Shown here: positions 28,259 through 60,590 of the stretch, piece after piece
Layout: every line of letters starts with the position of its first letter
Position numbering within the stretch: the stretch's first letter is position 1
Assembly (NCBI GenBank): GCA_009760885.1
Contig: CM019719.1
Span: 36,723,584 to 36,787,583, forward strand
DNA length: 64,000 nt
From: Achatina immaculata
Lineage: Eukaryota > Mollusca > Gastropoda > Stylommatophora > Achatinidae
Reading direction: 5' to 3'
Notes under the pieces: generated by a model
Database searches by the model: none
Seen by the model: only the letters and a program-made list of their open reading frames with translations
Told to the model about the DNA's origin: nothing
Made by a program: the position numbers and the translations under genes

Positions 28259-28375
28259 ACGCCTTCTCAGTGCCGACAGCTAAGAACATCCTGACAGCAG
28301 TGCCAGGGAGATAGAGCAGAAGCCCATCCCTTGCACATCAACTATCTGTCTTTGGAAGACAAGAACTTACTTCCT

Positions 28376-30407
28376 TATCTCCCTCCCTCTCTCTCTCTCT
28401 TTCTCTCTCATACACACAATTTTCTCTCTGTCTCACACACACACACACACTTTTCTGTCTTATACACACACCTACTTCTGTCTCTCTCACATAATACTTC
28501 TCTCTCATACACACTTCTCTCTCTCCGTCTCTCTCTCTCTCTCACACATACATGCATACACACTTCTCTCTCACGCACACACACATTTTTCTCTCTGTAT
28601 TTCACAAATACACACATCTCTCTCGCACACATAATTCTCACACAAATACACTTTTCTCTCTCACACATACACTTCTCTCTCTCTCTCTCACTTCTGTCTC
28701 TCTCACACACTTCTGTCTCTCTCACACACACTTCTCTCTCACACACTTCTGTCTCTCTCACACACTTCTGTCTCTCTCACACATACCCTTCTGTCTCTCT
28801 CACACATACACTTCTGTCTCGCTCACACATACACTTCTCTCTCTCTCTCACATACACTTCTGTCTCGCTCACACATACACTTCTCTCTCTCTCATACACA
28901 CACTTCTCTCTCTCTCACACATACTTCTCTCTTTCTCACACACACATTCTCTCACAGGGACACACTTCTGTCTCTCTCATATACTTCTCTCTCTCACACA
29001 AACTTCTGTCTCTCTCACACACATTTCTCTCACACATACACTTCTGTCTCTCTCTCTCACACACACACTTCTCTCTCTCTCACACACACACACTTCTGTC
29101 TCTCTCTCACATACTTCTCTCTCTCTCATACACATACTTCTCTTTCACACATATACACTTCTGTCTCTCTGTCTCTCTCACAATTCTGTCTCTCTCTCAC
29201 GCACACTTCTTTCTTTTTCACACACTTCTGTTTCTCTCACACGCACTTCTCTCTCACACATACACTTCTGTTTCTCTCCCACACACACTTCTTTCTCATA
29301 ACCACACTTCTGTCTCTCTCACAACCACACTTCTGTCTCTCTCACACACACACTTCTTTCTCACAACCACACTTCCGTCTCTCTCTCACACACACACTTC
29401 TGTCTCTCTGACATACACTTTTCTTTCTCACAACCACACTTATGTCTCTCTCACACACATTTCTTTCTCACAACCACACTTCTGTCTCTCTCACACACAC
29501 TCTTCTTTCTCACAACCACACTTCTGTCTCTCTCACACACATTTCTTTCTCACAACCACACTTCTGTCTCTCTCTCACACACACACACACTTCTGTCTCT
29601 CTCACACACACATTTTTTTCTCACAGCCACACTTCTGTCTCTCTTTCACACACTTCTTTCTCTCACATACATCTCTCTCACACACTCACTTCTCTTCCAC
29701 ACCCACACTTCTGTCTCTCTCTCTCTCTCTCTCACACACTTCTTTCTCTCTCACACACACTTCTCTCTCTCTTTCACACACAATTCTGTTTATCACACAC
29801 ACACACTTCTTTTTCACAACCACACTTCTGTCTCTCTCTCAACCACACTTCTGTCTCTCTCACACACACACTTCTTTCTCACAACCACACTTCCGTCTCT
29901 CTCTCACACACACACTTCTGTCTCTCTGACATACACTTTTCTTTCTCACAACCACACTTATGTCTCTCTCACACACATTTCTTTCTCACAACCACACTTC
30001 TGTCTCTCTCACACACACTCTTCTTTCTCACAACCACACTTCTGTCTCTCTCACACACATTTCTTTCTCACAACCACACTTCTGTCTCTCTCTCACACAC
30101 ACACACACTTCTGTCTCTCTCACACACACATTTTTTTCTCACAGCCACACTTCTGTCTCTCTTTCACACACTTCTTTCTCTCACATACATCTCTCTCACA
30201 CACTCACTTCTCTTCCACACCCACACTTCTGTCTCTCTCTCTCTCTCTCTCACACACTTCTTTCTCTCTCACACACACTTCTCTCTCTCTTTCACACACA
30301 ATTCTGTTTATCACACACACACACACTTCTTTTTCACAACCACACTTCTGTCTCTCTCTCCCTCTCACTTCTCTCTCACACACTCACTTCTCTATCACAC
30401 ACACACT

Positions 30408-30448
<41 letters not shown>

Positions 30449-30774
30449 TCTTTCTCTGTCACACACACACACTTCTGTCACTTACACACACACTTCTCCC
30501 TCACAACCATACTTCTGTCTCTTCACACACACACTTCTCTCTTACACACACACCTCTCTATCACACACACTTCTGTCTCTCTCACACACACACTTCGGCC
30601 TCTCTCTCTCACACACACACTTCTCTCCCACAATCACACTTCTGTCTCTCACACACACACACACACACACACACACTTCAGTCTCTCTCTCACACACACT
30701 TCTGTCTCTCTAACACACACTTCTCTCTCTCTCACACTCAGTCTCTCTCACACTCAGTCTCTCTCACACAGACG

Positions 30775-30809
<35 letters not shown>

Positions 30810-30812
30810 CAC
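28376..30812. repeat. 2.4-kb CT/CA-rich satellite with internal 518-bp duplication
   Basis: Irregular array of (CT)n, (CA)n and CTTCTGTCTCTCTCACAC-like units of about 19-26 bases. Frames of up to 532 codons stay open only because TA- and TG-containing stops are rare in this composition. Bases about 29321-29838 recur at about 29839-30358 with offset 518, including rare phrases such as CTGACATACACTTTTC. Confidence 0.95.
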
Positions 30813-30814
30813 AA

Positions 30815-30955
30815 TTTTTGTCAATTTTCCCACCCCCAGGGGCCTTTTTGGTGTGTACCAGAAAAAAAATCCCACTGCTGGGACTGAACCCGGTACCACC
30901 GGATTAGTCAACCGAGCGCCTAACCACTCAGCCAATCAGGCCACCCTTTAGTTCA
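30815..30955 (-). mobile_element. SINE family 1, tRNA-like head
   Basis: The minus strand has an A-box-like GGCTGAGTGGTTAGGCGC and a B-box GGTTCAGTCCC about 40 bases later, followed by GGTACACACC. It would not fold as a working tRNA; it is the head of a tRNA-derived SINE found also at 33883-34135 and 48010-48300. Confidence 0.7.
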
Positions 30956-35734: not shown

Positions 35735-37240
35735 TACAGATAGTCCTGTCATGCCACTGAGGTATATGAGGTGTGATCAGAAATTTTCTGGGCTGGTCCT
35801 ATAAATAAGTACAAACCTTATCAAAGCTTCCATTGGCTACCATCACCTGTGAAGTAGTTACTGATCCCTTGCTCTCTCTACTGCTAGAATCGTCCCTGGA
35901 AGTCTGTTTTGATGAGGTTGTCAAGCACCACTTGTGATTCTGCCTGGGATATACTTAGTGTTGTTAAATCACAGTCTTTCAGCTTCATTTTCAATTTTTG
36001 GAACAGAAAGAAGACACAAGGGGCAAAAACAGTGGAAAAAAAAAGAGAGTGGGATGGCAGTCATGTTGTTCTTAGACAGAAACTGCTGAGTGTTGAGGGC
36101 GCAGTGATGGAGGGGAGGGTGTGATGTCGTGGTGAAGTACTCAGTTTTTGTTCCTCACAAGAGACCAGGGTGTATCCTTCTCACATTTTCATGCAGTTGC
36201 CACAGAACATCAGTGTGGAAGCTGGAACTCACAGCTTGACTAGCAGGGACAAGTTCTTGGTACACAAGTCCATAGATGTCACAGAAAACAGTCACCATGC
36301 TCTTGACATTGCTTCTTGAATGTCTGACTTTTTTGTTACTTGGTGACTCTGGACTTTTCTGTTGGGACGAATGCTGTTTTGCCACTTGATCATAACCATA
36401 AACCCAGCTCTCATCACCGTTTATGACTCTTGACAAGATTTCATCCTCTGAGGCGAGTTGTTGAAGCTCAGTGCAGACATTGACTCATGCAGCTTTAGGT
36501 CAGCCATTAGGATCTGTGGAACAAATTTTACTGTTATACGGAGCATGCCTAGTTCTTCAGTGAGAATCATCTGACATGTCCAGAAACTGGTTCCTACCAC
36601 TTCACAAAGTCCTCGAATGGTCAGACTTCAGTCTTCATAGATGCTAGATCTCTGTAACATTTTTAAGAGTTGTGCTGGTCCCTGTGTGGTCACTGTCATC
36701 AATTGATCTCGACTAGCCTTGAATAACATATGCCACATAAATACCTGTGCACAGCCAAGAGATTTCTCACAAACATGTGTTGAATTTCTGCCAAGGTTTC
36801 TTTTGCAGATTGGATTTTCACAAACTCTGATGCAAACTTGCTGCTTATTTTTTTTTTCATCCATCTTGAAAATTACAAGATGACAAACACATGATGTCAA
36901 ACAAATGATTATCACTGTTCGCTGTGTAAGCCTAGGTCAGCACCACTTGACACACTTATTCACACCACATGCAAGTACTGCCACCTGATGTTGGATTGCA
37001 TCATTCCAACAGGTTTAGGAGTTGTAGTCTCATTCCAGAAAATTTCCAATCACACTTTGTATTGATGTATGGTGTTGATGCTTATATTTTCCTTGACCTG
37101 TCAGCTGACATCACAAGGAGATGATGTGGATAGACCATGGCTGCCCATGTTCCCATGTTGCTGGAAGAGCCAGGGACCAGTTTTTCATAACTGAGCAACA
37201 GAGATGTTGCAGCCCATAGTCTAACCACTAACCTTCACTA
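35735..37240 (-). mobile_element. SINE family 1 copy split by a mariner
   Basis: 35735-35766 and 37060-37240 are consecutive parts of SINE 1 (CCTGTCATGCC, then TATGGTGTTGATGC, TTTTCCTTGACCTGTCAG). They are interrupted at TA by the element at 35767-37059. Confidence 0.75.
35767..37059 (-). mobile_element. Mariner (family 2), full length, dead
   Basis: 1.29 kb between TA duplications (35765-35766, 37060-37061), with imperfect terminal repeats: GGTGTGATCAGAAATTTTCT on the left and AGTGTGATTGGAAATTTTCT as the reverse complement of the right end. The minus strand encodes MDEKKNKQQVCIRVC, LTEELGMLR, GDESWVYGYD and RSNVKSMVTVFCDIYG, i.e. the mariner HTH and first catalytic Asp. Several frameshifts and stops. 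Confidence 0.92.
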
Positions 37241-38457: not shown

Positions 38458-39979
38458 TATACTCACAGAAAAAAATAAGTGTGCAGTGGTGTCAAGCGCA
38501 CCAGTCATGTTGTCATGAGTGAAATGAAATCAAATTTGGCATGAAGTTTTGTCAGAGTGTTGTCCACTTTCCCATGCTGCACGAATTTGATCGCACTATT
38601 CATGGAGAGATAACCACAGCTCCAGTGAAATCATGTGCAGTGATCCGTGATTGGTTACTGACCACGGATAAAAGAAGGATAAGTGTGTAATTCTGTTCTC
38701 AGAGATTTCTTCACATAATTGTTAAAGAAAGGAGTAGTGGAATTCCAGCATAAACTTCTTTTGTCATCATGCCAAGATTGAATGAACATCAGCAAGAAAT
38801 AGCTGTTGGGATGCTAATTGCTGGATCAACAGTAGCAGCAGTATCTCAACATTTTAATGTTCACAGAAATGCAATATCACAACTTCAAAGTTGTTTTAAC
38901 CAAAATGGTTCTGTTGCTGACCTCCATAGAAGCAGTAGACCACGGGTTACATAAGACCGCTACATCCACCTCATGCACCTTTGTAACAGGTTTCTCCAGG
39001 CAACATGGACTGCCAGCAACATTTTAGATTTAAGACATGTGTCAGGCAGGACAATGTGGAACAGACTCAGAGAGGTAAATCTCTTACCTCATAGGCATGT
39101 AGTTAGACCAGCACTGACAGTTCACCACAGATGGGTACCTGCTTGACCTGGGCCAAGCACCATGTGGCATGGCCCTATCATCAATGGAGATGGATCCTAT
39201 TTACTGATGAGTCCAGATTCTGTCTGCAAGGCCATGATGGGTGTGCTTTAGTGTACAGGCGAAAAGGAGAACGCTTTGCGAATAACTGTGTGCTAGAGGT
39301 AGATAGGAGGAGAGGAGGCAGTGTAATGGTTTGGGGAGGAATTTCCTATGGTGGCCAAAAAAAAGTTTTCCTTAATGGCAACTTTACAGGTTTATGATAT
39401 AGGGACGAAATCATTGCGCGCCACGTAATGCCTTTGCAGTATGCTAATGGACAAGGCGTGATATTGCAGCAGGATAACACTCATCCACATGTCACACATG
39501 TGATCAGAGACCACTTTCAACAGCATCAAATTACTGTCTTGCCATGGCCAGCAGTTTCACCGGACCTGTCACCTATTGAGCACATTTGGGATGAACTGGA
39601 CCACAGGTTGCGAAGGCGACACATATGTTCTGGAAACCACCAAGAATTAGCCCAAGTGTTGCAAGAATAATGGAATAACATGGTTCAACAATTGATACAA
39701 CATGCCATTGGTTCAATGGGAAGGCGGTGTCAAGCAGTGATAACTGCCAAGGAGAACGCACATGATACTGAAACCCTGGTTTTCTTTTCTTGGGGTGGTG
39801 AGTCACATTATGTAAGTTTTTTTCACTTTTTTGTGACATATGACTGGCCTGAAAGTTATCGTTTTACCTGTTATTGAATAATCAAACATAATGTGTGCCA
39901 AATTTTATTTCAGTCATCACCTGAGCACGTTCATGGTGCTTTTTAAAGCATTGCACACTTACTTTTTTCCATGAGTATA
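38458..39979 (+). mobile_element. Tc1-like transposon, complete ends, broken transposase
   Basis: Ends TATACTCACAG (left) and TATACTCATGG (right, reverse complement) start terminal repeats of at least 30 bases that continue AAAAATAAGTGTGCA/AAAAGTAAGTGTGCA. The transposase starts MPRLNEHQQEIAVGML (38769) with a helix-turn-helix, then LFTDESRFCLQG, QQDNTHPHV and SPDLSPIEHIWDELD. The D-D-E residues have 34 residues between the last two (DD34E). Stops at 38952, 39398 and 39668 and a frameshift near 39130 inactivate it. Confidence 0.95.
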
Positions 39980-40236: not shown

Positions 40237-40478
40237 AATACCGCTGGTGACTGAGACAGACTTCCTGTCTGAGCGCTACAATATGGGTCATAGCAGTCGA
40301 GGAACAGCATTGATCATCAACAACATGGACTTTAAACTCAGGAGTGGTTTGGAGCGACGATCTGGGAGTATTGATGATGAAACTGCTATTTGTGGATTGT
40401 TGGGGACTTTGGGCTTTAAAAATCCCATTTGTTTGAGAGACCTGACAGTGTCAGATATGAAAAGGAGACTTTATGAAG
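40237..40478 (+). CDS. Caspase 2 exon: N-terminal half of the large subunit
   Basis: 242 bases, acceptor ACTCTCAG, donor GAAG|GTACAG. Encodes [19 protein letters not shown] and [11 protein letters not shown], including the S1-pocket Arg. Entry after two bases and exit after one base match the caspase 1 exon at 16753-16955. Confidence 0.92.
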
Positions 40479-43400
40479 GTACAGAAATATGGAATGAGAT
40501 AATCAGTTTCAGAAGATGAATTAATAGGTATTTAGGGTATTCTTGTAAGCATGAGAAAATAAAATATTAATTAGGAAACAGAAAAAGAAAATATATGGGA
40601 AAGACAAGATTAAAGTCATAAATGGTAAGATCAAGCTTTGCCTGCTAACAAAACATGATGTTTTGACTTGTCTTCATCAATTGTGACATTATTGTTTGGA
40701 AAACCTTTTTTTCCCTGTAGTTTTTTTTTTTCTAGTGACACAGTGTAAATATGTATGCACCATTTTAAGTTAGGTGAGGTAAAGATACAACAATCTATCA
40801 TGCACAGTGTAAAAAAGATATGGCATTCAGGTATTTGGCCAAAAGAATGGAAAAGAACTGTATTCATACCACTGCCAAAAAATGGTAACTTGAAATTATG
40901 CACAAACTACAGAACTGTTGCCCTGATTAGTCATGCCAGTAAAATTCTATTAAAAGTCATAATGGGTAGATTTCGTAAGAAAATAGAAGTCAATATGTAC
41001 AGCTTGGTTTTAGACAAGAAAGAGGATCAAGAGATCATATATTCAAAATAAGATTAATAATAGAGAAATACAGAGAATTTAATGTGAATCTATATTTATC
41101 TTTTATAGACTATTCAAAGGCATTTGATTGTGTACAACACCAGAAACTTTGGGAAATAATGGAAAAAATGGGATTTCAACACATTTGATACAATTAATCT
41201 CACTGCTGTATCTAGACCAACAAGCAGCAGTAAGAATAAATGGTGAAAAAACAACTTGGTTTGACATAAAACAAGGGGTCCGTCAGGGGCGCATATTGTC
41301 ACCTTACTTATTTAACTTGTATACTGAAAATATAATGAGGAATGTTAGAGAAGATGTAGACAAAGAATATTATGATGCCATAACGATTGGAGGTGATGAA
41401 ATACCAGATACTAGATATGCTGATGACACAGTATTACTGTCTACAACTCAAAAAGTAATGGAAAAACTAATTATTTCAGTCTGTAAGAATAGTGAAGAGC
41501 AAAAGTTTTATCTTAATGGAAGAAAACTAAATTGATGACAACTGACAAAACAAATAAGGCAGTTGAAATATGTATCAATGAGGGAAAAATTGGAAGAGGT
41601 GGAAGAGTTTTGAATATCTTGGATTATTACTAACTAATAATTTAGATACAATGAGGGAAATTAAAAGGAGGACATCTGTCACTCTTCAGAAAGTAAAACA
41701 ACTAAAGAATCTGTAGAGAGGAACAGACAGAACTACAAAAATAAGATTTTTAAGGGCATCCATCTTTCCCATTGCAACATATGCCTGTGAGACCTGGACA
41801 CTTAACAAAACAGCTGAGAAACACATAAATGCCTTTGAATGTAAATGCTACAGAAGAGTTCTTCAAATATCATGGATACAAAAAAGAACAAATATATCCA
41901 TACTACAAGAACTTAATATTGAAGAAGTCTGGCTAGTAAAGAGGATTAAACAGAAAAGTTAAATATTTTGGAGACATTAATTGTCATGATAATTTAGAGA
42001 AAACCGTCTTGGAAGGGTACATAATGGGAAAAATAAAGAGAGGAAGACCAAGGCGAAGATGGCTGCAAGACATCGTTGATGATCTGCAAGTGGATGCATC
42101 AGCAACAGGGCATCTTACAACCGAGAGGCCTACAGGAGAGTTGTTAGGGAGGCAAAGTTGCGCAAGTGGCTTGCAAATGACTGACTGAGGTAAAGGTATT
42201 AGTTGACAACCAGTATCACTGCACAAGGTCAGACCGTAAATGTTCTGCTGCCTAGTCAGAAACTGCCAACTTGTTATGGAAAATAAATGAAGGGGATGGA
42301 AATACTCTCCATTTTGACAATCAGTGATTTATAGCTGACATGCTAGCATCAGGTTGGTGAAATATACCCATTCTGTCCCACCTCTCTGTTGATACCCCCA
42401 GTTCATTCATTCATTTGCATGTCCCTTTCATTTTACCCCCAGTAACAGGTCTAAGTGGGCAGGGATCATCATAGTCCCCATGCCAGTGGAGTCTGCTGAA
42501 GGAGTTTTGCACACCCTCTCTTTCTATCTACTCTCAAGAACTGAAAAAATAGCTGACATGATGCTGTGCCTCAACATCTCCACATTATCAGCTGCAGAGA
42601 ACACAAACTTGCAGTTCCAGAGATGTTGAAGAAGAAGAAGATGGAAAATAAAAATGAAGGTAAATAATAAATAGAAAAGAAAAGGCAGAAAAGACTGATA
42701 TTTTAAGTTCATCTAACATACAGTTATTTTTCTTTCTTTTTTTCCCTCTTCCTTATATGAGCAGTGGCAAAGCAGGACCATACAAACAGTGACTGTTTTG
42801 TGTGCTTCATTCTTTCCTATGGAGATGAAGGTTATGTGTATGGAACAGATAACAAAGTTCCTATCGACGAGCTGGTGTTGCCTTTCAAGGGACATGCCTG
42901 CCCAAGTCTTGCTGGAAAGCCAAAGTTATTTTTCATTCAGGTAGATAAAATGTTTAGTTCAAATTTAATTTAGGCAAACATTTTTTAAATAAAATGTAAA
43001 AAAAAAAAAAATTGATATTCTATTAGCAGATCATCAGCAAAGATTGGTTGAAAGCATTGAGTGAACAAACAGTGGCGTGTAATGATTTTAGATATAATGA
43101 GCTGCCAAAATGTCTTAACAGTTGCTGCTTCAAAACGTTCCATGACTAAGGCATGTAATAAGACAGTGCTGTATGACTAGAAGTCACAAACTGTTGTGTT
43201 AGCCTCTACAGCATATTGTTACATAGAAATGAACTGTCTTTGCACCAGAGAGCCCTAAGCAAAACCCTACCCTATTTTCCTATATTTTGTAGAATTATTG
43301 TTTCAGGCTAGTGAAAGAATTTCATTCACTTGCAAGTTTTAAATCTGTGACCATTTGCTGATTAGATGCCTTAACTCCACATCTCCCATTTTCTTTCCTT

Positions 43401-46400
43401 TACCCCCATCTCAGTCGATCTTGATAACAGTCTGTTGTGTACTACAGTAAAAGCTAACAGACCAATGTTTTACCTGCAGTTATGAACAAACTAAATTGCT
43501 ACTGCACCCTGCGATAATTTACAGTGGCAAAGAAACACAGAGAATAACAAATGTCTTTTATCCCACCAATGTGTGAAAAAGGGAGACAAGCAGATGTGAA
43601 AGCTATACAGAGAAATCAGTAAGATCTTGCTGAATAAAGATAAATCTTAATATATACTTTTTCGTTCAGTGCGAATTTCAGTTAATATGATTACAAACAT
43701 TTACATCACATCTTTATATGTGCCTTCTAAAATTTCGAACCGCGCGACACAAAAATTTGTTTAACGCTTGAAAAATAAGATGCTTGAAAACCATCGTGCT
43801 TAAGCAGTGTTGCCAGATTGTGCTTTTTGTCATGATTTTATGTTCTCTCTTCTACCTCAGTGTTTTTGTCATGATTTTATGTTTTCTCTTCTACCTCAGT
43901 GTTTTTGTCATGTTCTCTCTTCTACCTCAGTGTTTTTGTCATGTTCTCTCTTCTACATCAGTGTTTTTGTCATGATTTTATGTTCTCTCTTCTACTTCAG
44001 TAGTGTGCCATAAAACAGCCAGAAATGTGGTTGTGAAAATGTTTTTGTTCAAATTATGTTTCACTCAGTGTAACGTAAACAGTAAAACACCATAAATGTA
44101 CACTTAATATGAACACAGGTGTGCTACAACAGAAATTTGTGTTGTCAAGTGTGCAAAAGTTTGAGAACCTCTTTTCTACTTTACTATGCATGGCTTTTGC
44201 ACCTTTGAAAATGGAATTGATGCTATTATTGTAGAAATTAGTGTCATTAGAAAGAAAATGTAGATTGTCTGAATGTCAGGGACTGCTTGAATTCACATTA
44301 ACAGCAAACCACGGACACAGATCTTGTAGAACCGGAGCAACAGAGTGCTTTTTATGCTGAGAAACAAGAACCTGCAACTGAATGAGAGGAATATGTCTGA
44401 ATGAAAATTTCATTAAAGGAATTCAAACAAATTTTTCAAGATTTAGAAGCAAAAAATTATAGATTTAGATCCAGATATAGATCCATTAATTTTAACATTT
44501 TTGTCTTTTGATATATTGACAAATGCTGCATTTCCTAAAAAAAGCCGATCATTTGTTCTCATCAGTTTGATTGAAGAATTTTAAAATTTAAAACAATTAT
44601 ATTTAGTGAAGTCAGTACAAAAATTGGCCATATATAACAATTATTACTTTTATTACTTGTATACTGTGTTTCATCTCCCCGAAAATCATGCTAACGATCT
44701 TTATAATCTTGACCATAAATTTTTGAAAGGCTTGCAAGGATAAAGTGACTGAAACAGTTACAGATGGTCTTGGAATTCCAGAATCATCAGGAGAGGGAGT
44801 AATCCGTCGTATCCCAACTGAGGCAGACTTTCTGATGGCGTATTCTGTGATTCCAGGTATGTTAGTGTTGTTTTTCTCATCTAGTACACCAGCATTTGTA
44901 TTAGTGCGAATATACTTGTCTTGTTTATTGAGCAAATTCTGGCAGACATGCTACTCTTTCTCTAGTTAGCTAGGAAGGACAATCATCCATGCACTATGGG
45001 CACATCCATAAGTGCTTCGATCTTCTGTTCAGTATCTCCTTCAGCATACAGTAACTGATGACACCCACTCATTGTTGACTGACCATCCATCTGGAGCACT
45101 TGATGAATTGTTCATTTCTTGTCACCCCAAATTCCACCCCAACTCCTTTGTTCTTGACAGTGACACAGATTCATAGTTGTCAGTGAAGTTTTTTTGTTCA
45201 GCCAGATTCACATATTCCATGTTTCTAATATTTTTAATGTTCCAAGGTCATAATCCATTTTTATCCATCCAATTTCAATGCCTCTCTATCTGTTCTGTAA
45301 CACTAATCTTTTTTACGGAGATGGAGTTGTTGGCCCCATTGCCCATCCTGGAGGACCAGGGTGCAGGTTTCATCTGACCCCTACCCTCACAGACCTTCCC
45401 ACCTTGGTTGGACCTGTCAGGAGTAAAACTACTGCTGATATAGCTCTAGGGGTTGGACTTCATTGACTTCAAGAAAGCTTATGACAGCATAGATAAGAGC
45501 AGCTTATGGAAAATTATGAAAGAATTTGAGATACCTAATAAATTAATCAGTTTGACCATAATATGCATGGAGGATGCACAAAATATAGTAATATATGAAG
45601 GTCAGAAAGTCAGAGCCCTTCTATGTAAGAATTGGTTTAAAACAAAGTGATACATAATCCCCATTACTATTCAGCCTAATACTAGAAAAGGTAATCAGAA
45701 AAGTGAAAGAAGAAAGCAGTACAGAAGAACAAGCTAAAATGCTAGGATAAGCTGACGGCATCAATTGGGGGGGGGGGGGGACTATGCAAGAAGTTATCAA
45801 TACCTGCATACACCTGAGAGAAAAGTGGGCTTGACCATTAGCCAAGATAAGACAGAGTATTTGAAGATATCAAGAGACCAGAGCCAGAATGATCCAAATG
45901 TTGGAGATATGATCATTAGGAAAGCAGAAACATACAAATATCTAGGCACAACCTTCATCAGAAGCAACATAATAAGCTAGGAAATTAAAATCAGAGTACA
46001 GATAGAGAATAAAATATATTTTGCCTTGTAACACTTGTTAAAATCCAAAATCCTGTCCCAAAACACCAAAATAACAATCTACAAAACTAATAAGACCAGC
46101 CATCATGTATGGATCAGAAACATGGAGTACAACAAAGAAAGGTGGACAACAATTGCAGATCTTTGAGAACAAGATCCTAAGAAGAATCTTTGGGCCCATA
46201 AAAGATACCTACAGTGAAGAATGGAGAGCTAGAAATAACACAGAACCGAACAGCTTATTTAAATCCCAACATATTATAAACATCTTGAAATTGAACAGAC
46301 TTCGCTGGTTGGGCCATGTAGAAAGAATGGAAGAGAATAGACAAATGAAAATTATACATGCACAAGAGATGAGGGAAAAAGACCAAGGGGTAGACCAGGA

Positions 46401-48646
46401 CAAAGATGAAAAGATAACATAGATGAGGATATAAAAGAAATTGGTGTCACCAACTGGAGGGAGAAGATTAGGAATAGAGAGGAATGGAGGTGAACTTTAT
46501 CTGCAGCATTTCCTCTGACACCTGCATGACCTGGTACAAAAATGAGTATCAGTCGATGGATCTGTGACGTCTGCGAGGATTCAAACCACTGGTTCCTAGG
46601 AGAGGCAGCCTGAATTTTCTTTAGCATGTTCTTCAAGTCATCCAAGGCATACCTGCATGTAAGTCTCATGACTGGAGCCATCTCAGAGCTTTTGTCACAG
46701 CAATGGTTTCCTTTGTGAGCCTGCTTGTTTTTTGCAGCATCAGAGTGGAGAACTATGCTTCCCAATAACATGAAATCAGATGCAGAAAAAATCAACACTT
46801 TAGTTAGCTGTAACTTACCTTCTTATATATCTTATATCCTTCCCGTGCCGTTAAACGTCACATAGGGCTTGCAAAGTAGTTCGCCAATTTTTCCTGTCTT
46901 TGGCGAGTCTTTCAACCTCATCAAAGGATTTTATGCCTGTTAACTTGGCCTCTCTTAATAATGTCCTCTTCAGAGTTTCACGCTGTCTGCCCCTTTTTCT
47001 TCGGCCTGTTGTGTTCCACTTGATAGCTTGTTTTGGGATTCTCTGATCATTTCTTCTCATCAAGTGACCAACATATGTCCATCTCCTTTTCCAGATCACC
47101 CATGAGGCTGGTTGTTGTTCAGTCATCTGTCTTATCTCTGCATTGTTCTTGAATTCATTCCACTTGATGCCGAGTATTTTCCTTAGGCATTTGTTTTCAA
47201 AAGAGTCTAATTTCTTTTCTATTTCTTTAGTTGTTTTCCAGCTTTCACATGCATAAATGAGGGTGGATATTACATTTGAATTGAATAGTCTTAACTTGGT
47301 TTTTGTGCTTATAACTTTTGAATTCCATATGTTCTCAAGATTCTTGAAGATTGATGCTGCTTTTGCAATTCTGATCCTAACTTCCTTTCTAGTGTCACCA
47401 TCCTGGTCTATGTAGCTGCCAAGGTATGCAAATTGATTGACTTCTTCAATATCTGTCCCTTCTATGTGTATTTTTCCATTTTGATCGATGGGAATTTTCA
47501 TTATTTTTGTTTTGTCCTTGTTAATTTCAAGTCCTATTTTGCTAGCCAGTGAAGACAGGTTATCTGTTTTTTCTTGCATGGAATTCACATTATTACTGAT
47601 AAGAGTTATGTCATCAGCAAAATCAAGATCTTCTAGTTGGGTCCCATGTACCCAGTCAATACCTGTGTTACCTGTGCAGCATTTTTTCGTTATGAAGTCT
47701 AATGTAATCCCAAAAAGTAAAGGAGACAGTATACATCCTTGTTTCACGCCTGTTTCAATCTGGAACCATTCACTCATCCCTTCTTCTGTCTTGACTGACA
47801 CAAAATAACTTATAAATTTGTCTTGTAATTCTTTTTTTTTTAAAAGAACAAATGAGTGTGAAACTTGTGGTTTATCTGTAATAGAACTTCTTTTGTTTCT
47901 TTGTTTTTTTTTTTAGTGTTGCAATCTTCACTTTTTAATACAGAAATGAAATGAAGGTTTGCTGTTCAGTTTAATATCAGAATTTGGCAGTACTGAGACC
48001 CTGTGTTTGAGCAGTTTCCTTCCCAGAGTGGTTAGGCTCTCAGTTTACTGATTTAGTTTACTAATCCACGGGTTCTGGGTTCAAGTCCCAGTAGTGGGAC
48101 TTTTTTTTTTTTACCAAAAAAGGCTCCCAGGATCAACCCAGCCTCAGCCTTGGAGAATGAGTCCCAGAGAAATCTGGGAAAGTAAATGCAGCCAGGTGTG
48201 ATACTGACCACATCAACACTTTCATGTGCCGAAGGTCTTGGAAATGCAGGGCTAACACCATATCCCCAATATGCTTTAATGGCGTGGAAACGGGGATTTT
48301 TTAAACCTTTTACATTTACATCAAAGAACATAATACTTAAATACATGGAGATCAGTCACATTTTTACTTGTGTCTCTTATCTGTTTCTGATTCTCGTTGT
48401 CATTTCCCCATCTCAGGCCGTTTATCCTGGAAACTTCCATCGAAAGGGTCATGGTTCATCCAAGCAGTAGTTGATGTCTTCGGTAAGAACTGGCAGACAA
48501 TGGATGTGATGACCATGCTGACGAGGGTTAACAGAAAGGTGGCCAGTGACTTTGAAACAGGAGCCCCCAACATGTTCCTCAACCAGAACAACCAGATTTC
48601 ATATATATCTTGCATGCTTACTAAGAATTTGCTGTTTGCCAGGTAG
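40237..48646 (+). CDS. Caspase 2: caspase-like protein with altered active site, first exon(s) not found
   Basis: Four exons (40237-40478, 42765-42940, 44730-44856, 48417-48646) join with matching phases 1, 0 and 1 into about 257 residues ending at TAG 48644-48646. That is close to the length of an effector caspase without its prodomain. Fold motifs are clear: [11 protein letters not shown], the S1-pocket Arg in [58 protein letters not shown] and a terminal [10 protein letters not shown]. Three functional positions differ from active caspases: catalytic His is Tyr (LSYGDE), QACRG is QACKD (Cys kept), and small-subunit SWR is SWK. There is no stop or frameshift, so it seems maintained. It may be a regulatory pseudocaspase or an enzyme with changed chemistry. 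The 5' end must lie upstream: exon 1 is entered after two bases of a codon. Confidence 0.88.
40750..42190 (+). mobile_element. LINE D, RT to 3' end, in a caspase 2 intron
   Basis: Encodes [33 protein letters not shown] in a broken frame, [31 protein letters not shown] and [11 protein letters not shown]. The EN part is absent (5'-truncated). Ends near 42185. Confidence 0.88.
42240..42640 (+). mobile_element. LINE C leader fragment
   Basis: Matches 8960-9370 (GGAGTCTGCTGAAGGA, TGACATGATGCT, TGCCTCAACATCT, GTTCCAG), which precedes the LINE C endonuclease. Carries the 32-base insert at 42402-42433. Confidence 0.7.
42402..42433 (-). mobile_element. 32-base LINE D tail insertion
   Basis: TTCATTCATTCATTTGCATG plus TCCC matches the extreme 3' end of LINE D (3018-3045). 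It is flanked by TACCCCCAG at 42393-42401 and 42434-42442; the uninterrupted sequence is at about 9104. Confidence 0.85.
42765..42940 (+). CDS. Caspase 2 exon: His position replaced by Tyr
   Basis: 176 bases, acceptor ATGAGCAG, donor TTCAG|GTAGAT, phases 1 to 0. Encodes [20 protein letters not shown] and later [15 protein letters not shown]. The codon at the catalytic His position is TAT (Tyr), one transition away from CAT (His). Confidence 0.93.
43000..43815. other. No gene recognised
   Basis: Caspase 2 intron, AT-rich; nothing supported. Confidence 0.5.
43820..44005. repeat. Tandem repeat, 37-bp unit with a shorter variant
   Basis: GTTTTTGTCATG(ATTTTATG)TTCTCTCTTCTACCTCA recurs about five times; some units lack the bracketed bases and are shorter. 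Confidence 0.9.
44730..44856 (+). CDS. Caspase 2 exon: catalytic Cys (ACKD), linker, small-subunit start
   Basis: 127 bases, acceptor TTGAAAG, donor CCAG|GTATGT, phases 0 to 1. Begins GCT TGC AAG GAT, giving QACKD with the preceding Gln. The linker has TVTDG, a possible cleavage site, then [15 protein letters not shown]. Caspase 1 encodes this stretch in two exons. Confidence 0.9.
44860..45450. other. No gene recognised
   Basis: Caspase 2 intron; 45300-45450 is GC-richer (GGCCCCATTGCCCATCCTGG) but has no recognised content. Confidence 0.5.
45455..46505 (+). mobile_element. LINE C, RT to near 3' end
   Basis: Encodes [53 protein letters not shown] and [17 protein letters not shown], with stops between. 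Same family as the copy at 8945-14570. Confidence 0.88.
46508..46805 (-). mobile_element. RNase H fragment of an I-type LINE
   Basis: The minus strand encodes [17 protein letters not shown] and [17 protein letters not shown], the C-terminal RNase H motif. It joins directly to the LINE C copy on its left. A different copy, possibly a different family, from 10080-10740. Confidence 0.65.
46820..47803 (-). mobile_element. LINE B, longest open RT frame in the window
   Basis: 316 codons open: [95 protein letters not shown], ending CDV and stop. The RT core FADD is intact, suggesting a recent insertion, but the 5' half with EN is missing. Confidence 0.93.
48010..48300 (+). mobile_element. SINE family 1, nearly full length
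   Basis: Head with GAGTGGTTAGGCTCTCAG (A-box-like) and GGTTCAAGTCCC (B-box), then a T run and a body of about 180 bases ending near GCGTGGAAACGGGG. About 115 bases before the terminal caspase 2 exon. Confidence 0.8.
48417..48646 (+). CDS. Caspase 2 terminal exon: small subunit
   Basis: 230 bases after acceptor CCATCTCAG, ending in TAG. Encodes [35 protein letters not shown] and [17 protein letters not shown]. Active caspases have SWR where this has SWK; that Arg normally helps bind the P1 Asp of the substrate. AATAAA occurs at about 49065 as a possible polyadenylation signal. Confidence 0.93.
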
Positions 48647-50114: not shown

Positions 50115-50363
50115 TCAGTATCTTGACTTATACAAGGTGAACCTTGTCATTGGTGCTGGAGTTATGTCTGTTTTTGCAGTACTCTTTGCACATTTAATAA
50201 TCCCCATTTTTGTTCCATCAGAATTACAGAGTTCTCTGTTTATTGCCAGTGGACCCACACGGCCACTTCTGCGCTGTAACAGTGACTTGAAGCTGTTCCT
50301 AAATTTCTGGTTCAAGAAAGCGTAGATAATGGGGTTGTACGCTGTGCTGCTAAGTGCCAAACA
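50115..50363 (-). CDS. GPCR exon 6: TM7 and C-terminal tail
   Basis: Acceptor CTTCACAG, then CLALSSTAYNPIIYAFLNQK (NPxxY motif) and a tail of about 60 residues with RRSGR, ELCNSD and KCAKS. Stop TGA at 50117-50115. Confidence 0.93.
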   Translation of the reverse strand, partial: CLALSSTAYNPIIYAFLNQKFRNSFKSLLQRRSGRVGPLAINRELCNSDGTKMGIIKCAKSTAKTDITPAPMTRFTLYKSRY

Positions 50364-53300
50364 CTGTGAAGAAATACAAACATTTTATCTTTGATATGAA
50401 AGGCATTGATTAATGTTAGGTTTCTTTTTCTAAATTATTATTGGATCACATAACAATAATATGATTTTGATTCTCTCCTTTTGTGTTATATCATTCTTTC
50501 ATAATTTGCAAGTGTGTCAGTCTTCGGTTAGTCAGAGTGTGTGATGGAAAATAGGTTTCATGTACATTTCTTATGTTTATCCTTTTTTTTTTAAAAATGT
50601 CTTTTATTCATTTATTGAACAGATAATCAAGGCATGAACTGTCATAGAGAGAATTCTTGGGCTTGTTTGGAGACTGAGTGTGTATTCCACTGTTGGACTG
50701 TTCCAGTAGTTGGCATTCACAGACTCATCCCATGTCTCATCTTCAGTCATGATTCTGTCAAGAAATTCATTCTCTTCTTATTGGTCACACATTCTCTGAA
50801 AATCACAAATGTCAGCCAGTTCTTGACATCACTTATGCACAGAACATATAGCACAGTCTCTCTGGGATATCTTAAAACAGACTAGTCCTTGAAATTTGAG
50901 GAAATTCATCAGAAAGATAAAAAATCATGAAATAATACTTTTTCACACACAACTTGTTTGACTTTTGAACAAGTTTATCAGTCACAATTGAGTGTCATTG
51001 TAGTCAAACTATTCACCTGACAACTGGCAGGAGTGTATACATGTATCAATGTATACTCAGTCATTACTCATGCACAACTGAACAAAATGACTGGTGGGTG
51101 GCATTTAGTGAGATATTGCTTTACTGGCTGTTACAAGAAATGTGCACCTTGCTATGACAAAAGGTTCATCCATCTGGAGATTTATTTTGGAATTGTCCCT
51201 GTAAATGCCCCTTTTAACACTCTTTCACTTGGCATTTTATAACACTATTTCACATGGTTAGTATAGTAATGACCTCTAATAATGCTGTTTCACTTAGTGT
51301 TCCATTTGTTAGGAAGACATCAGGAGCAATAACCCAGGCATTAGTGTACAAGAAATATATATTCATAAATTTTTAATACCACATTTTGGGGGTGAGGTTT
51401 TCAGGGAATTATCTTTTGCTTTTTTTTTTTTTTTCCTTGTGATCTGAAGAAAGGCTGGAAGTCACTACTCTGTTATTTTCCTATCACACAGGACAGGTCA
51501 GCCTGATTTCATGTTATGCATATTCCTCTTTATGTTGCACTAAAAAAACTATAACAGTTCCCGGTATTTATAATGCAAATTTCTGGGGAACTACTGTGCT
51601 CACATTCAGTCTATACATATGTATACAAATTTTGCATACTAAAATGTATCCATTGTGTCTGCAAAGAAAAAAAAAACTACACACTAACCTGCAGATAGTA
51701 CTTCACATGTATGAGGGTTGAAGAGACGTGTATATGGCCATCTACCTTTACGACTAGGTCAAAGGTTAGAAGTGGAGTCCAGCAGACCAGAAAGAGGATA
51801 ACCACCAAGCCCAGCATCTTGATGGCTTTCTTCTTAAATCGGGCTCTGAAGCCAGCGTCGCCGGTAACAATCACACCGACCGGGCCCTGGTGGCCACAAG
51901 TGATATAAATGTAAGCAGGTCAGAGCTAGGATGTATAATCAGGGACTTCTTCTTCTGCGTTCACCCTCACATGGACGTTGGTCGCGTTGTTATCACTACC
52001 TGCAGCTAAGCTGTGATATCTGTCCTCGGCGTGGCTAATTTTTTAAACACGACTTGCCAACTCATTCGATCCATAATCACCGTTTATTTCCAGGGGACAC
52101 TACAGGGAAGTAGAACAGGGTCTTGGTTGCTGTGCTACCATGGCACAAGTTGTCAGCTTCAGTAATCCCTCTTCGTCTTTCCCCTCTTCCCCCTCCCCCC
52201 CCCCTTTTTTTCCTTAAAATTAAAAAAAAATTCATTTACTGTATTTTTCGCCTCTATCCGCCACCATTTCTTGAGCGCACTGATTTTAGATCTCCAGTTT
52301 GAAGTTAAAATATTTCAGAGCTGTGGAGTTTGAAATCATACGTGAAAAATATAGTTCTTTATCCATAATTATTGGTACGTTTCAAAAAATAAAAATAAAG
52401 AAACTTACGTGCAGTAACTTCATACAACCATTTTTTAAACGAGGAAAGTGATACTAATAAAGAGTAATCATCATCAGGTGCCATGCCGACTGGCGTTGGC
52501 TATTATGCTTCTTCAGAGTACACGATCCTTCATGCATGCCATTAGCTCAGTAGCTGATTCTCGGTGTATATATATACACACACACACACACATACTATTT
52601 TTCGGTATAATGACCAAGCTCATTAAGACATTTGACCGCAGGACCAACTTTTCCACCCCAGCTCTGTAGAAGTCATGTCCCTACTGATTTAGCCATTTTC
52701 ATATGCTCGGATAACACATGTGGCACCTATCTGGCACAAGCCTTTGTGCAGCGCAACATATCCACCACGAGGTGTCGAACACTGCCGTAGCTCTGTCCCA
52801 GCTGGGACACAAAGTTATCCTTCAGTCCTGCTGAATCAGTTCGTCAACACGTGCAGCATTGACCTAATTTGTCAACTTCGACGCCCGCTGTTTCCAGTGT
52901 GTCTAGCATTCCACACCATCCATGCTGGATATAAACAAGAGACGCTCTTTTGCTGCCCAGAACTTTTTCACCATAAACCTCGATGAGGTGGTGGTGAATT
53001 TCGGCCGCGGACATGTTCTTAGTCCACAAAAATCTTATCACACCTCTCACTTCAACAACAGACCACTTTTCCAGAGCTGACGACATTTTGATATTTACGC
53101 ATCTTCGTCCTTCTGCGGTTCAGAACACACTGACAACTAGCGCCACCTAGTGGATATCCAGGTCAAAAATTACATACGTCAGTAAACGCTTCTTAAAATT
53201 ATGGCTCTTGTGACCTTTTCTTCTTATCAGTCTACGTAGAGAACGCTTATATATATATATACCCTTTTTTTAGATCTAAGCTTCATCATCATCAGGTGCC

Positions 53301-56300
53301 GTGCCGACTGGTGTTGGCTATTATGCTTCTCCAGAGTACACGATCCTTCATGCAGGCCATCAGCTCACTTGGTGATCTCCTCTCACACCATCCCATCAGA
53401 CTGTCCACTATCATTTCTCTTGGTCTTCCTCTTGATCTTCTTCCTTCTATATTGCCTGTTATAATATTTTCAATGCCCCCTCTTCTCATTGTATGTCCTA
53501 TGAAAGTACATTGTCTATCTCATCTTTTTTACAAGATTTTATTTTTGTCTCTCCAGCTCTTCTCATACATTCTTCATTAGTTGTTTTTGCTGTCCAGGGG
53601 ATTCACAACATTCTTCTAATAAACCACATTTCTACTGCTTCCAGTGATTTTTGCGCAGATCTGCCTAATGTCCATGATTCACTCCCATATGATAAGATAG
53701 GTTCAGTATAGCATTTTAGGACTCGTTTTATAACATTCATTGATAAGGATGTGTTGGATAATATGTTTCTCATTCTCTGAAATGCAGTCTTTGCTTGGCC
53801 TATGCTGTTCCTAATTTCCGTTCTGCATTTCCCATCTGAAATTATTACTGCTCCAAGGTATTTGAATTTCCGCACCTGCTTTAGAATAGTTCCGTTTAAT
53901 TTTATACTGCATGTTGATGGATTCTGTTTCTTAGATATAACCTTAGTCTGTATTTTTTTATGTTCAAAGTAAGGCCTTTCTATTCACTTTCTTTGGCCAC
54001 TTTATCCAAGAGATTTTGCAGGTGTTGTTGGTTGTCAGCTATCAATACTGTGTCGTCAGCATACCGAAGGTTGTTAATATTGTATCCTCCAATTTTTATG
54101 CCTGGTTCTGTGATGATCGTTCTTAGAATATTCTTGCTGTACAGAGAAGAAAGGTCTGGAGATAGTACACATCCTTGTCACACCCCTTGTTTTATAGGTT
54201 GATATTTTCCAGTTCTATTTTCAACTCGAATTGCTGTTTCTTGCTGCCAGTATAGATGTTTTACAGTGCTCGGGTCTTTGCCGTATATACTAATGTCTTC
54301 AAGCATTTTAATAATTTCATTATGTTTCACCTTGTCGAATGCCTTGGTGTAATCAATGAAGCATAAGTAGACATCTTTCTGTACTTCTAAAGCTCTTTCT
54401 GTTAATGTCCGTAAAGCATAAATGGCATTGCGTGTTTCCTTTCCTTCAACAAATCCAAACTGTTCATCTGTTATTTCCATTTTTATCTTTTTCCTTGTTC
54501 TTCTCATAATGTTTCTCAGACCTAGCTTCGTTATATGACATGAGAGGCTGATAGTCCGGTGGTCATCACATTCCTTTGCACCTGGTTTCTTTGGTAGTGC
54601 TATAAACGTGGATTTAATCAGGTCACTGGGCATATAACCACTGTTGCAAATGTCATTCAGTAACTTGGTTATTATTTTTATTCCTGTCTCCTCTAGTGGC
54701 TCTATTTCTTCTATTGTTATATTATCAGGCCCAGCCGCTTTTCCTTTCTTCATGTGTTTGGTGGCATCTATGATTTCATCTTCAAGTATTGGTGGTCCAT
54801 CACAGTTTTCAGTATCTGGTGTTAATTCTGGTCTTCTCCTCCATATAGCTCACCGATGTACTCTGTCCACTTAGATCTAAGCATGTGCTACTAAGCACAT
54901 GGTTCTAGGTAGTGCAGTGGCGAGATATTTTGCGTCTCAGGAAAAGTGAACTAATAGGACATAAAACTGTCCCTCAGACCACAGACATGCTCACCCATGC
55001 CTGGCCAGGTGGAGACACCGACGCTAGACACAGACAAGAAAGGCAGAACTTTTCGTTTTTCTCTTGTCGGTCAACCTGGCAGCCACTTTGGAAATTCAAG
55101 GTAACGAGTATAGCGGAGAAAAACGTAGGCTGACCAAGGAGCACTGGAAATGATCGAGACAGAAGTGTCAAGGACCGCACCAAATGGAGAAACATGCTCG
55201 TCCTCATCATCTTCGGCACGTTGTGTAACGATTTCATTGTGTTTTATCTTGTATGTTTGTGACTAAATGTCTCATAATAGCAACTACTTATAGATTCAGT
55301 AAGAATGATGGCGATGATGATGATGAGTGCTTTGATGATATGATCCTCTACGCCCTGCAGTAATGAGAATTATTGTAATTAAGGTAAAGATGATGGATAA
55401 TGAAAGTGGTGCATCTGATAATGATGATGATGAAAATACTTTGATCCAGAGCTTGTAGATGATGATGCCGTAGGCCAGACAAAGAACGAACGCCGGGAAA
55501 ATGAACAGGATCAGGTAGGTAAACCAATGTAGGTATACCGTAGCCAAGCTGCTTCCTTCTTTGGCGCTGCAGATCGTATGCTGTCATGATACAGAAACGT
55601 ATAATTAATGTACAGCTTTATAGAAATGCTTCCCTATTAGTTAACAGCTCTAAAATATCTAATCTTTAGTTTACCTTTACACAGAAACGTGTCTTAGTTT
55701 GTTGTGTGTGTGTTTTTTTTTTCTTTTCTTAATATAAGATAGCTTTATTTTAAGGACACAAATTTACTGTAAAAAATTTTCTCTGGAACAGTGATCGGGT
55801 TAACCAGAAATTACCAGTAACTTGCCGATTGAGATGGATGGATGTTACTGTAACAATCAGCGAGATCGGTTGGAGGATAATTAGGCCAGTAGGATGATGA
55901 TGCTCAATTTGCATAGAGGAGAATCAACCAGTTTTGAGTTTGGTTCAACATGTGAGCATTTTGTAAAGATTAAAAACTCACTGCCAATGAGAAGTAAGAA
56001 AGACGATTCACACGAAGATTTACTTTCCGCTGAGATTTGTAAAGTGTGTTTAAGTTTACATTAAAAGAAAAAGTATAAAGAACCGAATGTGTTGTACTGA
56101 GAAAACCGATATTTCGGAAAGTGCTTCATGCAAGATGGAAGACAAGTACCAGTTGTACCGGTTCCGAAAAATCCCAGCATAACCGCAGCTCTGGAGGTCA
56201 ACAAAGGAACAAAGGTTGGTGTTTTAAGGCAGGTGTTTTTGCTTATTATTCTTTTCGGACAAATAATGCTTCGCATTTAAACAAAAAATAAATGTAAGTT

Positions 56301-59300
56301 TACAAGTAAAACACAAGTTTTAAATATTTTGTTTAAATACAATTTTCTCATCGTTTGAGGATACCTCATAGCAGCGTCCAGACGGCAGCCGTCCGCTGCA
56401 TATTTTACGGGTTTCATAGTAGCAGACGTAGGGTGCAGCAGCGCCAAAAGCCACCACCCAGACTACGACCAGCAGCACCAAGGATCGCCTTGTTGACTGT
56501 GAAAGAATTAGTGACGTTAACTGTTAATTTTCCTCTCTTATATACGTATCACTGGCATAACGAAATTTCTGCACAGACTTCGGATGGCCGTTTTTCATTC
56601 AGACTCATACCTTCCCTTTAAATACTGTCTTTTGTGTTTTTTGTTTTTTTTTTCTGCATACATGAATCACAGCAACAGAAAAGATCAATTGGAAGAGAGG
56701 AAAGGGATGGCCATAGGAGAAGATCATGGACAGTCAACGCGATCTTACATCTTACGTCCTTCCCATGCCGTTGAATGTCCCACTATAGCATGCCATGTTG
56801 TTTTGTTTTGTTTTTTTTTCTTCTGTTTTCGGCGAGTTTTTCAACCTCGTCAAGGGATTTTAATCTCACTAATTTAACCTCTCTAAACAATGTTCTCATT
56901 AGAGTTTCACGTGGTCGACCTCATTTTCTTTGTCTTGTTGTGTCCCATTGGACAGATTGTTTTGGTAATAAAAATAGGTGAAAGTGTATGGTTCAGTTTT
57001 ACAAAAAGATAGAAAGAGTGAGGAGAGTTGGCAGAAACAAGAATGACAGAAAGTAAGATGAGTACGTATACATGAAGGACATACAACAATCCAATATTTC
57101 GGCAAAAGCCTTTTTCAAGGATCACATTTAAAAAAAACCAACACAACAGATAAAAGCACGAAAAATAGATGAAAAATATGTAGATCTAGCTTTTTTTGGC
57201 CTCTTACTAATAATAAGGCCCGGCACAAAATGCCAAGATAGATTGTTCTGAGAATTCTCTGATTGTTTCTTCTCATCACATTGCCGATGTACGTCCATCT
57301 CTTTTTTTTTTTTTTTTAAATCACCGATGAGTCAGGCAATTCTGTGCTCATCTTTGTTATGATGTGATAGCATGATTTTTTTTTGTAAAAAAAAAGTCAC
57401 GAACTGAGATGATGGAAAATGATCAAGGATCGAGTTCTGTGGAAAAGCATGGCCGTCAGCTTCTGCTGCCATGGCACATGATGATGTATGAATGGAGAAA
57501 GAATTTACATCACAGATAACGAGAATTAAATTCTAGCAATGAAAAGTACAGAAGGAACGTAAATATCTGCAAGAGAATGGCATCAAAGTACATCATTTCA
57601 TTTTTTTTTTTTTTTTGTCTCCTAAAGTGTAGCCAAATCATTTAAAAAAAAAACTAAACTGGAAAAAAATACTTATTTATTAACTTTTAAAAAATGTCCG
57701 CTGTTACTATTTTTTTTATAATATAAATGAAGTATTCGAAAGCTTTCCTAGCTCAAACAAACAAACAAACAAGCAAGGAAACAAACAGATAAACAAGCAA
57801 GCAAACAAACAAGCAAACGAACAATTCTGAATGTCATAAGAGAAAACAGTGAATACTGTTAGTTCGATAAAATATGTCTTTGTAAAGTGAATGTGTTGTT
57901 TATCTGACTACAGCTTGAACATCCCCCCCCCCTTTTTTTTTTTCCTTAAACCACACAAACACACACACACACACGACACCGCGCTGATGACAGAGAACCA
58001 AAAGTATGAACTAGGAAAAAAAAAAGAAAGCCAAATGTTATGATAATCAGCAGAGAGGAAATAATACCAAACATAAACATAAAAATAAATGAGGAATTAC
58101 TCGAACAAATGAAGTTTCAAATATTTTGGAACACATGATAGCAGAGGATAGAAAGTGTGAAACGGAAATTAACAGAATAATAGGAATGGCCAAAAAAAAA
58201 AAAAACTTTCAACGGAATGAGGAAGATCCTTACGTCAAAACAAATATCACGGCAACTGAGACTACGTATCATAAAATACTACATATATTCAACATTCCTT
58301 TATGGTGTAGAAGCCTGGACCTCGAATAAGACAACAGAAAGAAAAATTAAGGCCATCAAAATGTAGATATACAGAATAATGGGGGTTATCAGAAGGACGG
58401 AAAAGAAAACAACGTGCTAGATCAGCTGGAATTGAAAGGAGCAGTATTGAAAATCAGAAGAACAAGACAACTGGGATACTTTTGACACGTCAAAAGGCAT
58501 AATACTGTACTTGAAGACTGCTTGAGGGCAAGATCGAAGGGAAGAGAAGCAGGGGACGACAACGACATGGATGGGTGGATAAAATCAAGAGATGGACAGG
58601 AACCAGCTAGGCCGAGTGCTGTACGAAGGCAAGAGAGAGAACAGACTGGAGACTCACTATATCTAACCTACCATGGGGAGACGTCTCCAGATGGTGATGA
58701 TAAAGAATGTCATGCGATTACTCTTGACTTGTGTAATATAGATAATAAAGTCAGCCACCTACCTGCAAGGAACCGACCTTGAGTGGGTAAACAATTGCCA
58801 GGAAACGTTCTCCCGCCATGCAGCACAAAGTAAGAACACTGGAAGTCTTGGTCACTTGCATAAAGAACGGCACTAATTGGCACGTTGCTCTGCCGAACAG
58901 CCATTCCGTAGTCAGCGTCTGGCCTATGCTCAGGGGAATGCATGTTACGCTGTTACAGATATGGGGAAAAAACGAAGGTGCGTCCGATTTAATGTTACAA
59001 TAAAGGCTGGCAAATCTAGCTGCAGTGTCCTGCATGGTGTTTAGTTTTAGTATGATTTATGTGTATGTGCTACAGACTAAAGAAACACAGCACAGCTGTG
59101 TGATATCACGCAACACTACTGTAGGGTTAAGTCATAGGATTTATATTATTACAATATTTGTCTTGGAGAATGGAGAGCTAGAAAGAACACTGAACTTAAC
59201 AGTGGATTATAAACTCATTGAAACTGGACAGATTACACTGGTTGTATCATATAAAAAGAATAGAACAGAAAAACGAAAATGATGTATGTACAAGAGATGA

Positions 59301-60231: not shown

Positions 60232-60239
60232 TTCTTTCC

Positions 60240-60590
60240 TCAGTATTTTAAGTAGCAGACGTTGTTAAGACCTGAGTTGTTGGAGTTATTAAAATTTCAT
60301 GAAGATAATATAGCCGAAACCGTAATTAACTTCTTTACATATTATTAATAGCAATTTTCAGAGCATAAACTTCTGTTGAAACTAGAGATTTTACTGAATA
60401 CTAATATTAGATCTTCTCAATTAAAAGAAATTGAATACGAATAGTACATTCACGGGAATAGATATTCTCGCTTAAAGTATGAATGGATAAGTTATTCCGT
60501 AATCATTATTACAAACAGAAGCAAAATTGTAAACGATGTATCCGTTATACAGTCTTGCACTGTTGTATACATTTTCCATAGATAATATAA
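60240..60590. other. GPCR 5' flank
   Basis: AT-rich sequence upstream of the receptor ATG, probably 5' UTR or first intron; no promoter elements evident here. Confidence 0.4.

What the first reader, a model, noticed from the sequence alone, without database searches (positions are those of the whole stretch)
42765..48646. A caspase with His-to-Tyr, QACRG-to-QACKD and SWR-to-SWK: probable pseudocaspase
Seen: TCC TAT GGA where active caspases have S-H-G; CAG|GCT TGC AAG GAT gives QACKD; CCTGG AAA gives SWK. Known for the caspase family: the His is part of the catalytic dyad, and the Arg before the small-subunit loop helps bind P1 Asp. The nucleophilic Cys and the large-subunit S1 Arg are kept, and all four exons are intact. 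Inference: the protein has lost normal proteolysis but is retained, perhaps as a partner or inhibitor of the neighbouring caspase 1, as cFLIP is for caspase-8.
Basis: partly seen in the sequence, partly recalled or inferred. Interest (0 to 1): 0.85.

Follow-up and report, generated by a model that had tools for sequence, protein, structure and literature searches.

The report
Gastropod caspase-3-like probable dead caspase
A snail or slug gene for a cell-death enzyme of the caspase-3/7 kind keeps an intact caspase domain but has altered catalytic and substrate-gripping residues, and the same combination of changes seems to have arisen separately in two other gastropod lineages, which hints at a kept, non-cutting caspase.

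Summary
Cys, large-subunit S1 Arg and a linker Asp remain. Kin are gastropod, best hits heterobranch; the species is unknown. Of 248 domains in 236 listed homologues, five have Tyr: three Haliotis proteins and two unnamed contigs placed among caenogastropods; all five also lack the Gly and the Arg. A tree without those columns puts the Tyr genes in three places and rejects one clade (p-AU 3.7e-5). Oyster Cg3A with Tyr is published. No stop occurs, and change falls from 63% to 15% with rising conservation, so the fold stayed constrained for most of the branch; recent loss is not excluded. Best reading: a probably inactive effector caspase that works by pairing with an active paralogue. Inactivity, expression and partner are untested. 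The neighbouring minus-strand caspase is only 31% identical, so nothing favours it as partner. Late decay of a duplicate is the main rival.

The parts
40237..40478 (+). First caspase exon found (start of large subunit, S1 Arg at 40358-40360)
   Evidence: phase 2 acceptor, phase 1 donor
42765..42940 (+). Second exon, with SYG in place of SHG
   Evidence: 80% identity to Elysia P0001
42818..42820 (+). TAT, Tyr99 at the dyad His position (caspase-7 H144)
44730..44856 (+). Third exon, ACKD and intersubunit linker
44733..44741 (+). TGC AAG GAT: kept Cys141, then Lys142 Asp143 for Arg Gly
44763..44765 (+). GAT, linker Asp151 (TVTD|G), possible processing site
   Evidence: cleavage inferred
48417..48646 (+). 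Fourth exon, small subunit to stop codon
48431..48433 (+). AAA, Lys187 at the small-subunit S1 Arg (caspase-7 R233)
48602..48604 (+). TAT, Tyr244 at the caspase-7 C290 dimer-interface position

Best explanation
A caspase-3/7-like (effector-type) paralogue of a heterobranch-like gastropod that has probably lost normal proteolysis and kept its fold. Shown: whole four-exon domain; Tyr for the dyad His; loss of the Gly after QACx; Lys for the small-subunit S1 Arg; Cys, large-subunit S1 Arg, Gln and a linker Asp kept; graded constraint along the protein. Inferred: it is expressed, is cut at TVTD|G by active caspases, and pairs with an active caspase-3-like paralogue encoded elsewhere in the genome, changing that partner's activation, as FLIP(L) does with caspase-8. 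Speculative: Tyr at the C290 interface position and the neighbouring changes favour hetero- over homodimers.
For: Domain and motifs. Of 248 domains in 236 listed homologues 239 have His, five Tyr and four neither; the five and the query all lack Gly143 and Arg187 and keep Arg41, Gln139 and Cys141. Tree of 76 rows without columns 99, 142, 143, 187: Tyr genes in three places, fewest changes 3; one clade rejected p-AU 3.7e-5; query plus Haliotis 9.2e-5, query plus P0202/P0209 8.5e-5. No stop in 257 codons, where about 154 neutral replacements would bring 7.4 to 8.9. Query differs from the consensus of 13 active-looking heterobranch rows at 7/47, 10/41, 20/52 and 64/101 columns from most to least conserved. 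Haliotis Tyr protein P0050 models as a caspase: pLDDT 74.2, best PDB match caspase-7, E 1.8e-26. P0202 and P0209 are 301- and 302-aa frames on contigs of 1159 and 1202 bases, as spliced transcripts would be. Oyster Cg3A has Tyr for His and is expressed (PMC7836458, passages).
Against: No expression, activity or binding data for this gene. Start codon and N-terminus not found. Loss at recalled active-site columns is not significantly enriched for the query: 3/11 against 4/36, p 0.2; P0050 also 0.2; P0202 0.042. Gly143 or Arg187 is also lost in duplicates that keep His (P0005, P0011, P0015, P0217, P0229), so these columns are easily lost. The query branch is long (0.6, up to 1.11); kinship with P0011 is 98/89 in the large tree but 94/89 in a smaller one, and query plus P0015 is not rejected, p 0.37. 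Forty neutral replacements would leave no stop with P 0.10-0.15, so recent release is possible. Tyr244 also occurs in P0041, which has SHG, QACRG and SWR.
Confidence: 0.5

Rival explanations
1. A duplicate in decay: catalysis was lost recently, nothing selects for the protein now, and stops have not yet appeared.
For: Long branch; 7 of 47 highly conserved columns changed, against 0 to 3 in most long-branched His rows looked at; after 40 neutral replacements no stop has P 0.10-0.15; P0011, its nearest row in the large tree, lost other residues (Cys, Arg41).
Against: Four intact exons; strong gradient of change with conservation; the same combination in Haliotis and P0202/P0209 with whole frames.
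Confidence: 0.3
2. Still a protease, with slow catalysis or another P1 preference, Tyr and Lys making a different active site around the kept Cys.
For: Cys141, Gln139 and Arg41 are kept in all Tyr rows seen; Lys can carry charge in S1.
Against: Cys-His dyad lost; Gly after QACx lost; no known alternative base.
Confidence: 0.1
3. It specifically regulates the neighbouring minus-strand caspase (413-16955).
For: Same window, same intron positions and phases.
Against: 31% identity over 140 aa, opposite strand, 23 kb away; caspase-3-like proteins of other gastropods are much closer.
Confidence: 0.06
4. Sequence or assembly error at the three sites.
For: TAT is one C-to-T change from CAT; no reads seen.
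Against: Three separate sites plus other changes in an otherwise intact frame; same pattern in other species.
Confidence: 0.02

Closest known systems
Gastropod caspase-3-like proteins (Elysia P0001, Plakobranchus P0002, Arion P0005)
   Same: 55-56% identity over the whole domain
   Different: P0001 and P0002 have SHG, QACRG and A/SWR; P0005 has SHG, QACRN and CWR
Haliotis proteins P0050, P0121, P0122
   Same: SYG, no RG after QAC, no S1 Arg in the small subunit, Cys kept
   Different: Gln, not Lys, at 187; placed beside Haliotis P0016/P0025, which have SHG, QACRG and SWR
Unnamed contigs P0202, P0209
   Same: SYG, QACPP, no S1 Arg in the small subunit
   Different: Ser at 187, Phe for Trp194; placed among caenogastropod rows
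Oyster Cg3A (PMC7836458, passages)
   Same: executioner-type caspase with Tyr for the dyad His, expressed
   Different: QSCRG; its small-subunit Arg was not seen and it is not in our alignment
cFLIP(L) (PMC7586951, passages)
   Same: caspase fold without the dyad, acts in a heterodimer
   Different: dyad replaced by Arg and Tyr with Cys lost, tandem DEDs, partner caspase-8
Aedes caspase-like decoy, Bryant et al. 2010 (only its title, in the reference list of PMC3141678; paper not held)
   Same: by title, a decoy that enhances a paralogous caspase
   Different: dipteran; residues not compared here

Membership tests
Caspase family (Peptidase_C14) | caspase domain over its full length | tested here: met
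   PF00656 2e-56, profile 1-232 of 233
Active effector caspase | Cys-His dyad | tested here: not met
   Cys141 kept, Tyr99 for His
Active effector caspase | S1 pocket of two Arg and a Gln (roles recalled) | tested here: not met
   Arg41 and Gln139 kept, Lys187 for Arg
Active effector caspase | linker Asp for processing | tested here: inconclusive
   Asp151 at a column with Asp in 33 of 40 active-looking gastropod domains; linker alignment uncertain, cleavage untested
Pseudocaspase | caspase domain with catalytic residues missing | tested here: met
Pseudocaspase | no proteolytic activity | not testable with these tools
   needs an assay
cFLIP | tandem DED prodomain | tested here: inconclusive
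   5' exon not found
cFLIP | dyad Cys replaced | tested here: not met
   Cys141 kept
Simple pseudogene | stops, frameshifts or broken splice sites | tested here: not met
   none in the four exons; the 5' exon was not seen

The most novel reading that the evidence does not exclude
Gastropods repeatedly make the same kind of non-cutting effector caspase: at least three lineages put Tyr in place of the dyad His and also lost the Gly after QACx and the small-subunit S1 Arg, while keeping the Cys and the large-subunit Arg. The combination would be a favoured route to processable heterodimer partners that set the threshold of caspase-3-type cell death, not random decay.
Probability: 0.27. Interest if true: 0.72.

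Novelty: new member of a known kind. Interest (0 to 1): 0.48.

Why it matters
Whether inactive caspases outside vertebrates and insects are kept for a purpose is open; in the bivalve survey the authors only say that caspases lacking His or Cys may have lost activity (PMC7836458, passages). A gastropod gene with three altered catalytic positions, and two separately placed lineages with the same combination, gives replicate cases in which selection, partner choice and effect on caspase-3 can be tested side by side.

Tried and rejected
A single old orthologous Tyr clade: rejected (p-AU 3.7e-5). P0015 (QACKG, AWN, linker ETVTD) as the orthologue: neither shown nor rejected (p 0.37). Y244 as a mark of inactivity: weakened, since P0041 has it with intact motifs. 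Start codon exon: one pattern scan, one unconvincing match at 36969-37121. Other caspase pieces in the window: tblastn with nine homologues gave the four exons, minus-strand pieces at 7940-7737, 16948-16805 and 6426-6385, and otherwise nothing below E 0.02. First splice borders were off by one and redone. The 0.003 chance figure for two further shared lost columns assumes all columns equally easy to lose, which His-bearing duplicates contradict, so it is not used as evidence. Species of the window: not identified. The genome search, same request, unreachable six times, so the genome's other caspases were not seen. Literature: ten searches, the last showing 15 of 359; none listed a paper whose title or abstract treats an inactive gastropod caspase. 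The library lacks most subscription papers.

Full report
What is there. Four exons on the + strand, 40237-40478, 42765-42940, 44730-44856 and 48417-48646, have GT-AG borders, fit in phase and read 257 codons without a stop before TAG. Exon one starts in phase 2, so at least one 5' exon is missing; one pattern scan upstream did not find it. The protein is a caspase domain (Pfam 2e-56), closest among solved structures to caspase-7 and among proteins to caspase-3-like sequences of heterobranch gastropods at 55-56% identity. Tyr99, Cys141 and Lys187 stand at caspase-7 H144, C186 and R233 by counting along the alignment.

How unusual. Three searches listed 120 proteins each out of 1128, 618 and 4973, 236 distinct. 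The second and third queries held Tyr sequences, so Tyr kin may be over-represented. In 248 domains, 239 have His, five Tyr, and four another residue or a gap. The five are Haliotis P0050, P0121, P0122 and unnamed P0202, P0209. All five, like the query, lack Gly143 and Arg187 and keep Arg41, Gln139 and Cys141. Other duplicates are altered but keep His: P0011 QSSKG/AWK, P0015 QACKG/AWN, P0005 QACRN, P0217 QACKE, P0229 QACRA/VWN.

Origins. In a tree of 76 rows chosen from the 236 plus the query, with columns 99, 142, 143 and 187 left out, the Haliotis three sit beside Haliotis P0016/P0025 (99/91), P0202/P0209 with P0014 and P0019 (100/97) in a set that includes Babylonia, Nucella, Littorina and Batillaria proteins (caenogastropods, recalled), and the query among heterobranch rows with P0011 (98/89) and P0005 (96/91). 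One clade of all six Tyr rows is rejected, p-AU 3.7e-5; Tyr needs three changes. Query plus Haliotis and query plus P0202/P0209 are each rejected (9.2e-5, 8.5e-5); Haliotis plus P0202/P0209 was not tested. The query's own nearest kin stay unsure: smaller trees give 87 to 94% support and a branch of 0.83 to 1.11, and query plus P0015 is not rejected (p 0.37). A published fourth case of Tyr is oyster Cg3A with QSCRG (PMC7836458, passages).

Constraint. Taking the 0.6 branch as about 154 replacements, 7.4 to 8.9 stops would be expected if neutral (P of none 0.0002 to 0.0008); with only 40 neutral replacements P is 0.10 to 0.15. Against the consensus of 13 active-looking heterobranch rows the query differs at 15, 24, 38 and 63% of columns from most to least conserved, so most of its divergence built up under constraint. 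It differs at 7 of 47 columns conserved in at least 95% of 220 active-looking domains; Tyr rows lose 7 or 8, while His rows on similar or longer branches lose P0031 1, P0034 0, P0038 0, P0227 3. Losses are not clearly concentrated in the active site for the query (p 0.2; site columns recalled). Recent loss of function is therefore not excluded.

Fold and interface. The Haliotis Tyr protein P0050 is predicted as a caspase (pLDDT 74.2, pTM 0.74; best PDB match a caspase-7, E 1.8e-26). The window protein was not folded. The query and P0011 have Tyr244 where 38 of 40 active-looking gastropod domains have Cys (rows without names were counted as gastropod by tree place); this is caspase-7 C290, the residue used to tether allosteric ligands at the dimer interface (PMC5698726, passages). 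P0041 has the same Tyr with intact motifs.

Linker. Asp151 (TVTD|G) stands at a column with Asp in 33 of 40 active-looking gastropod domains. The profile alignment reads Thr there in P0005 and P0015, though TVSD and TVTD occur in their sequences, and Glu in P0011, so the linker alignment is uncertain.

Neighbour. The minus-strand caspase has exons 16955-16753, 7939-7740, 6423-6200 and 525-413 and runs off the window; it has SHG, QACRG, an Arg in the S1 stretch, the same three intron positions, and is a C14 domain (7e-29). It is 31% identical to the query over 140 aa. No closer caspase lies in the window, and the rest of the genome could not be searched.

Verdict. Probably an inactive effector caspase of a known general kind. 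The recurrence of one combination in three gastropod places is the most interesting part. Mechanism by pairing with an active paralogue is inferred from FLIP(L) (PMC7586951, passages) and from the title of the mosquito decoy paper.

Noticed in passing
window 413-16955, minus strand: Second caspase gene, exons 16955-16753, 7939-7740, 6423-6200, 525-413, with SHG and QACRG and a long linker; its last exon lies beyond the window.
   Followed up: partly
window 50115-60264, minus strand: Pieces of a rhodopsin-family receptor (7tm_1 8.2e-14 for 58751-59056 and 7.4e-06, below the curated cut-off, for 51677-51919).
   Followed up: partly
window 39398-39670 (+), 46851-47912 (-), 21333-22145 (-): Transposon pieces: DDE_3 transposase and reverse transcriptases; the 46851-47912 one lies inside the last intron of the caspase gene.
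   Followed up: partly
window about 28300-30900: Long CT/CA-rich simple repeat with strong GC skew.
   Followed up: no
window 15718-16455: Tandem repeat that reads GLNTRQDTK/E over and over.
   Followed up: no
protein P0011 (Candidula unifasciata): Caspase-like protein with QSSKG, His for S1 Arg41 and Lys for Arg187, keeping the dyad His: the complementary loss to the window gene.
   Followed up: partly
protein P0207 (Liolophura sinensis): One protein with two caspase domains in tandem.
   Followed up: no
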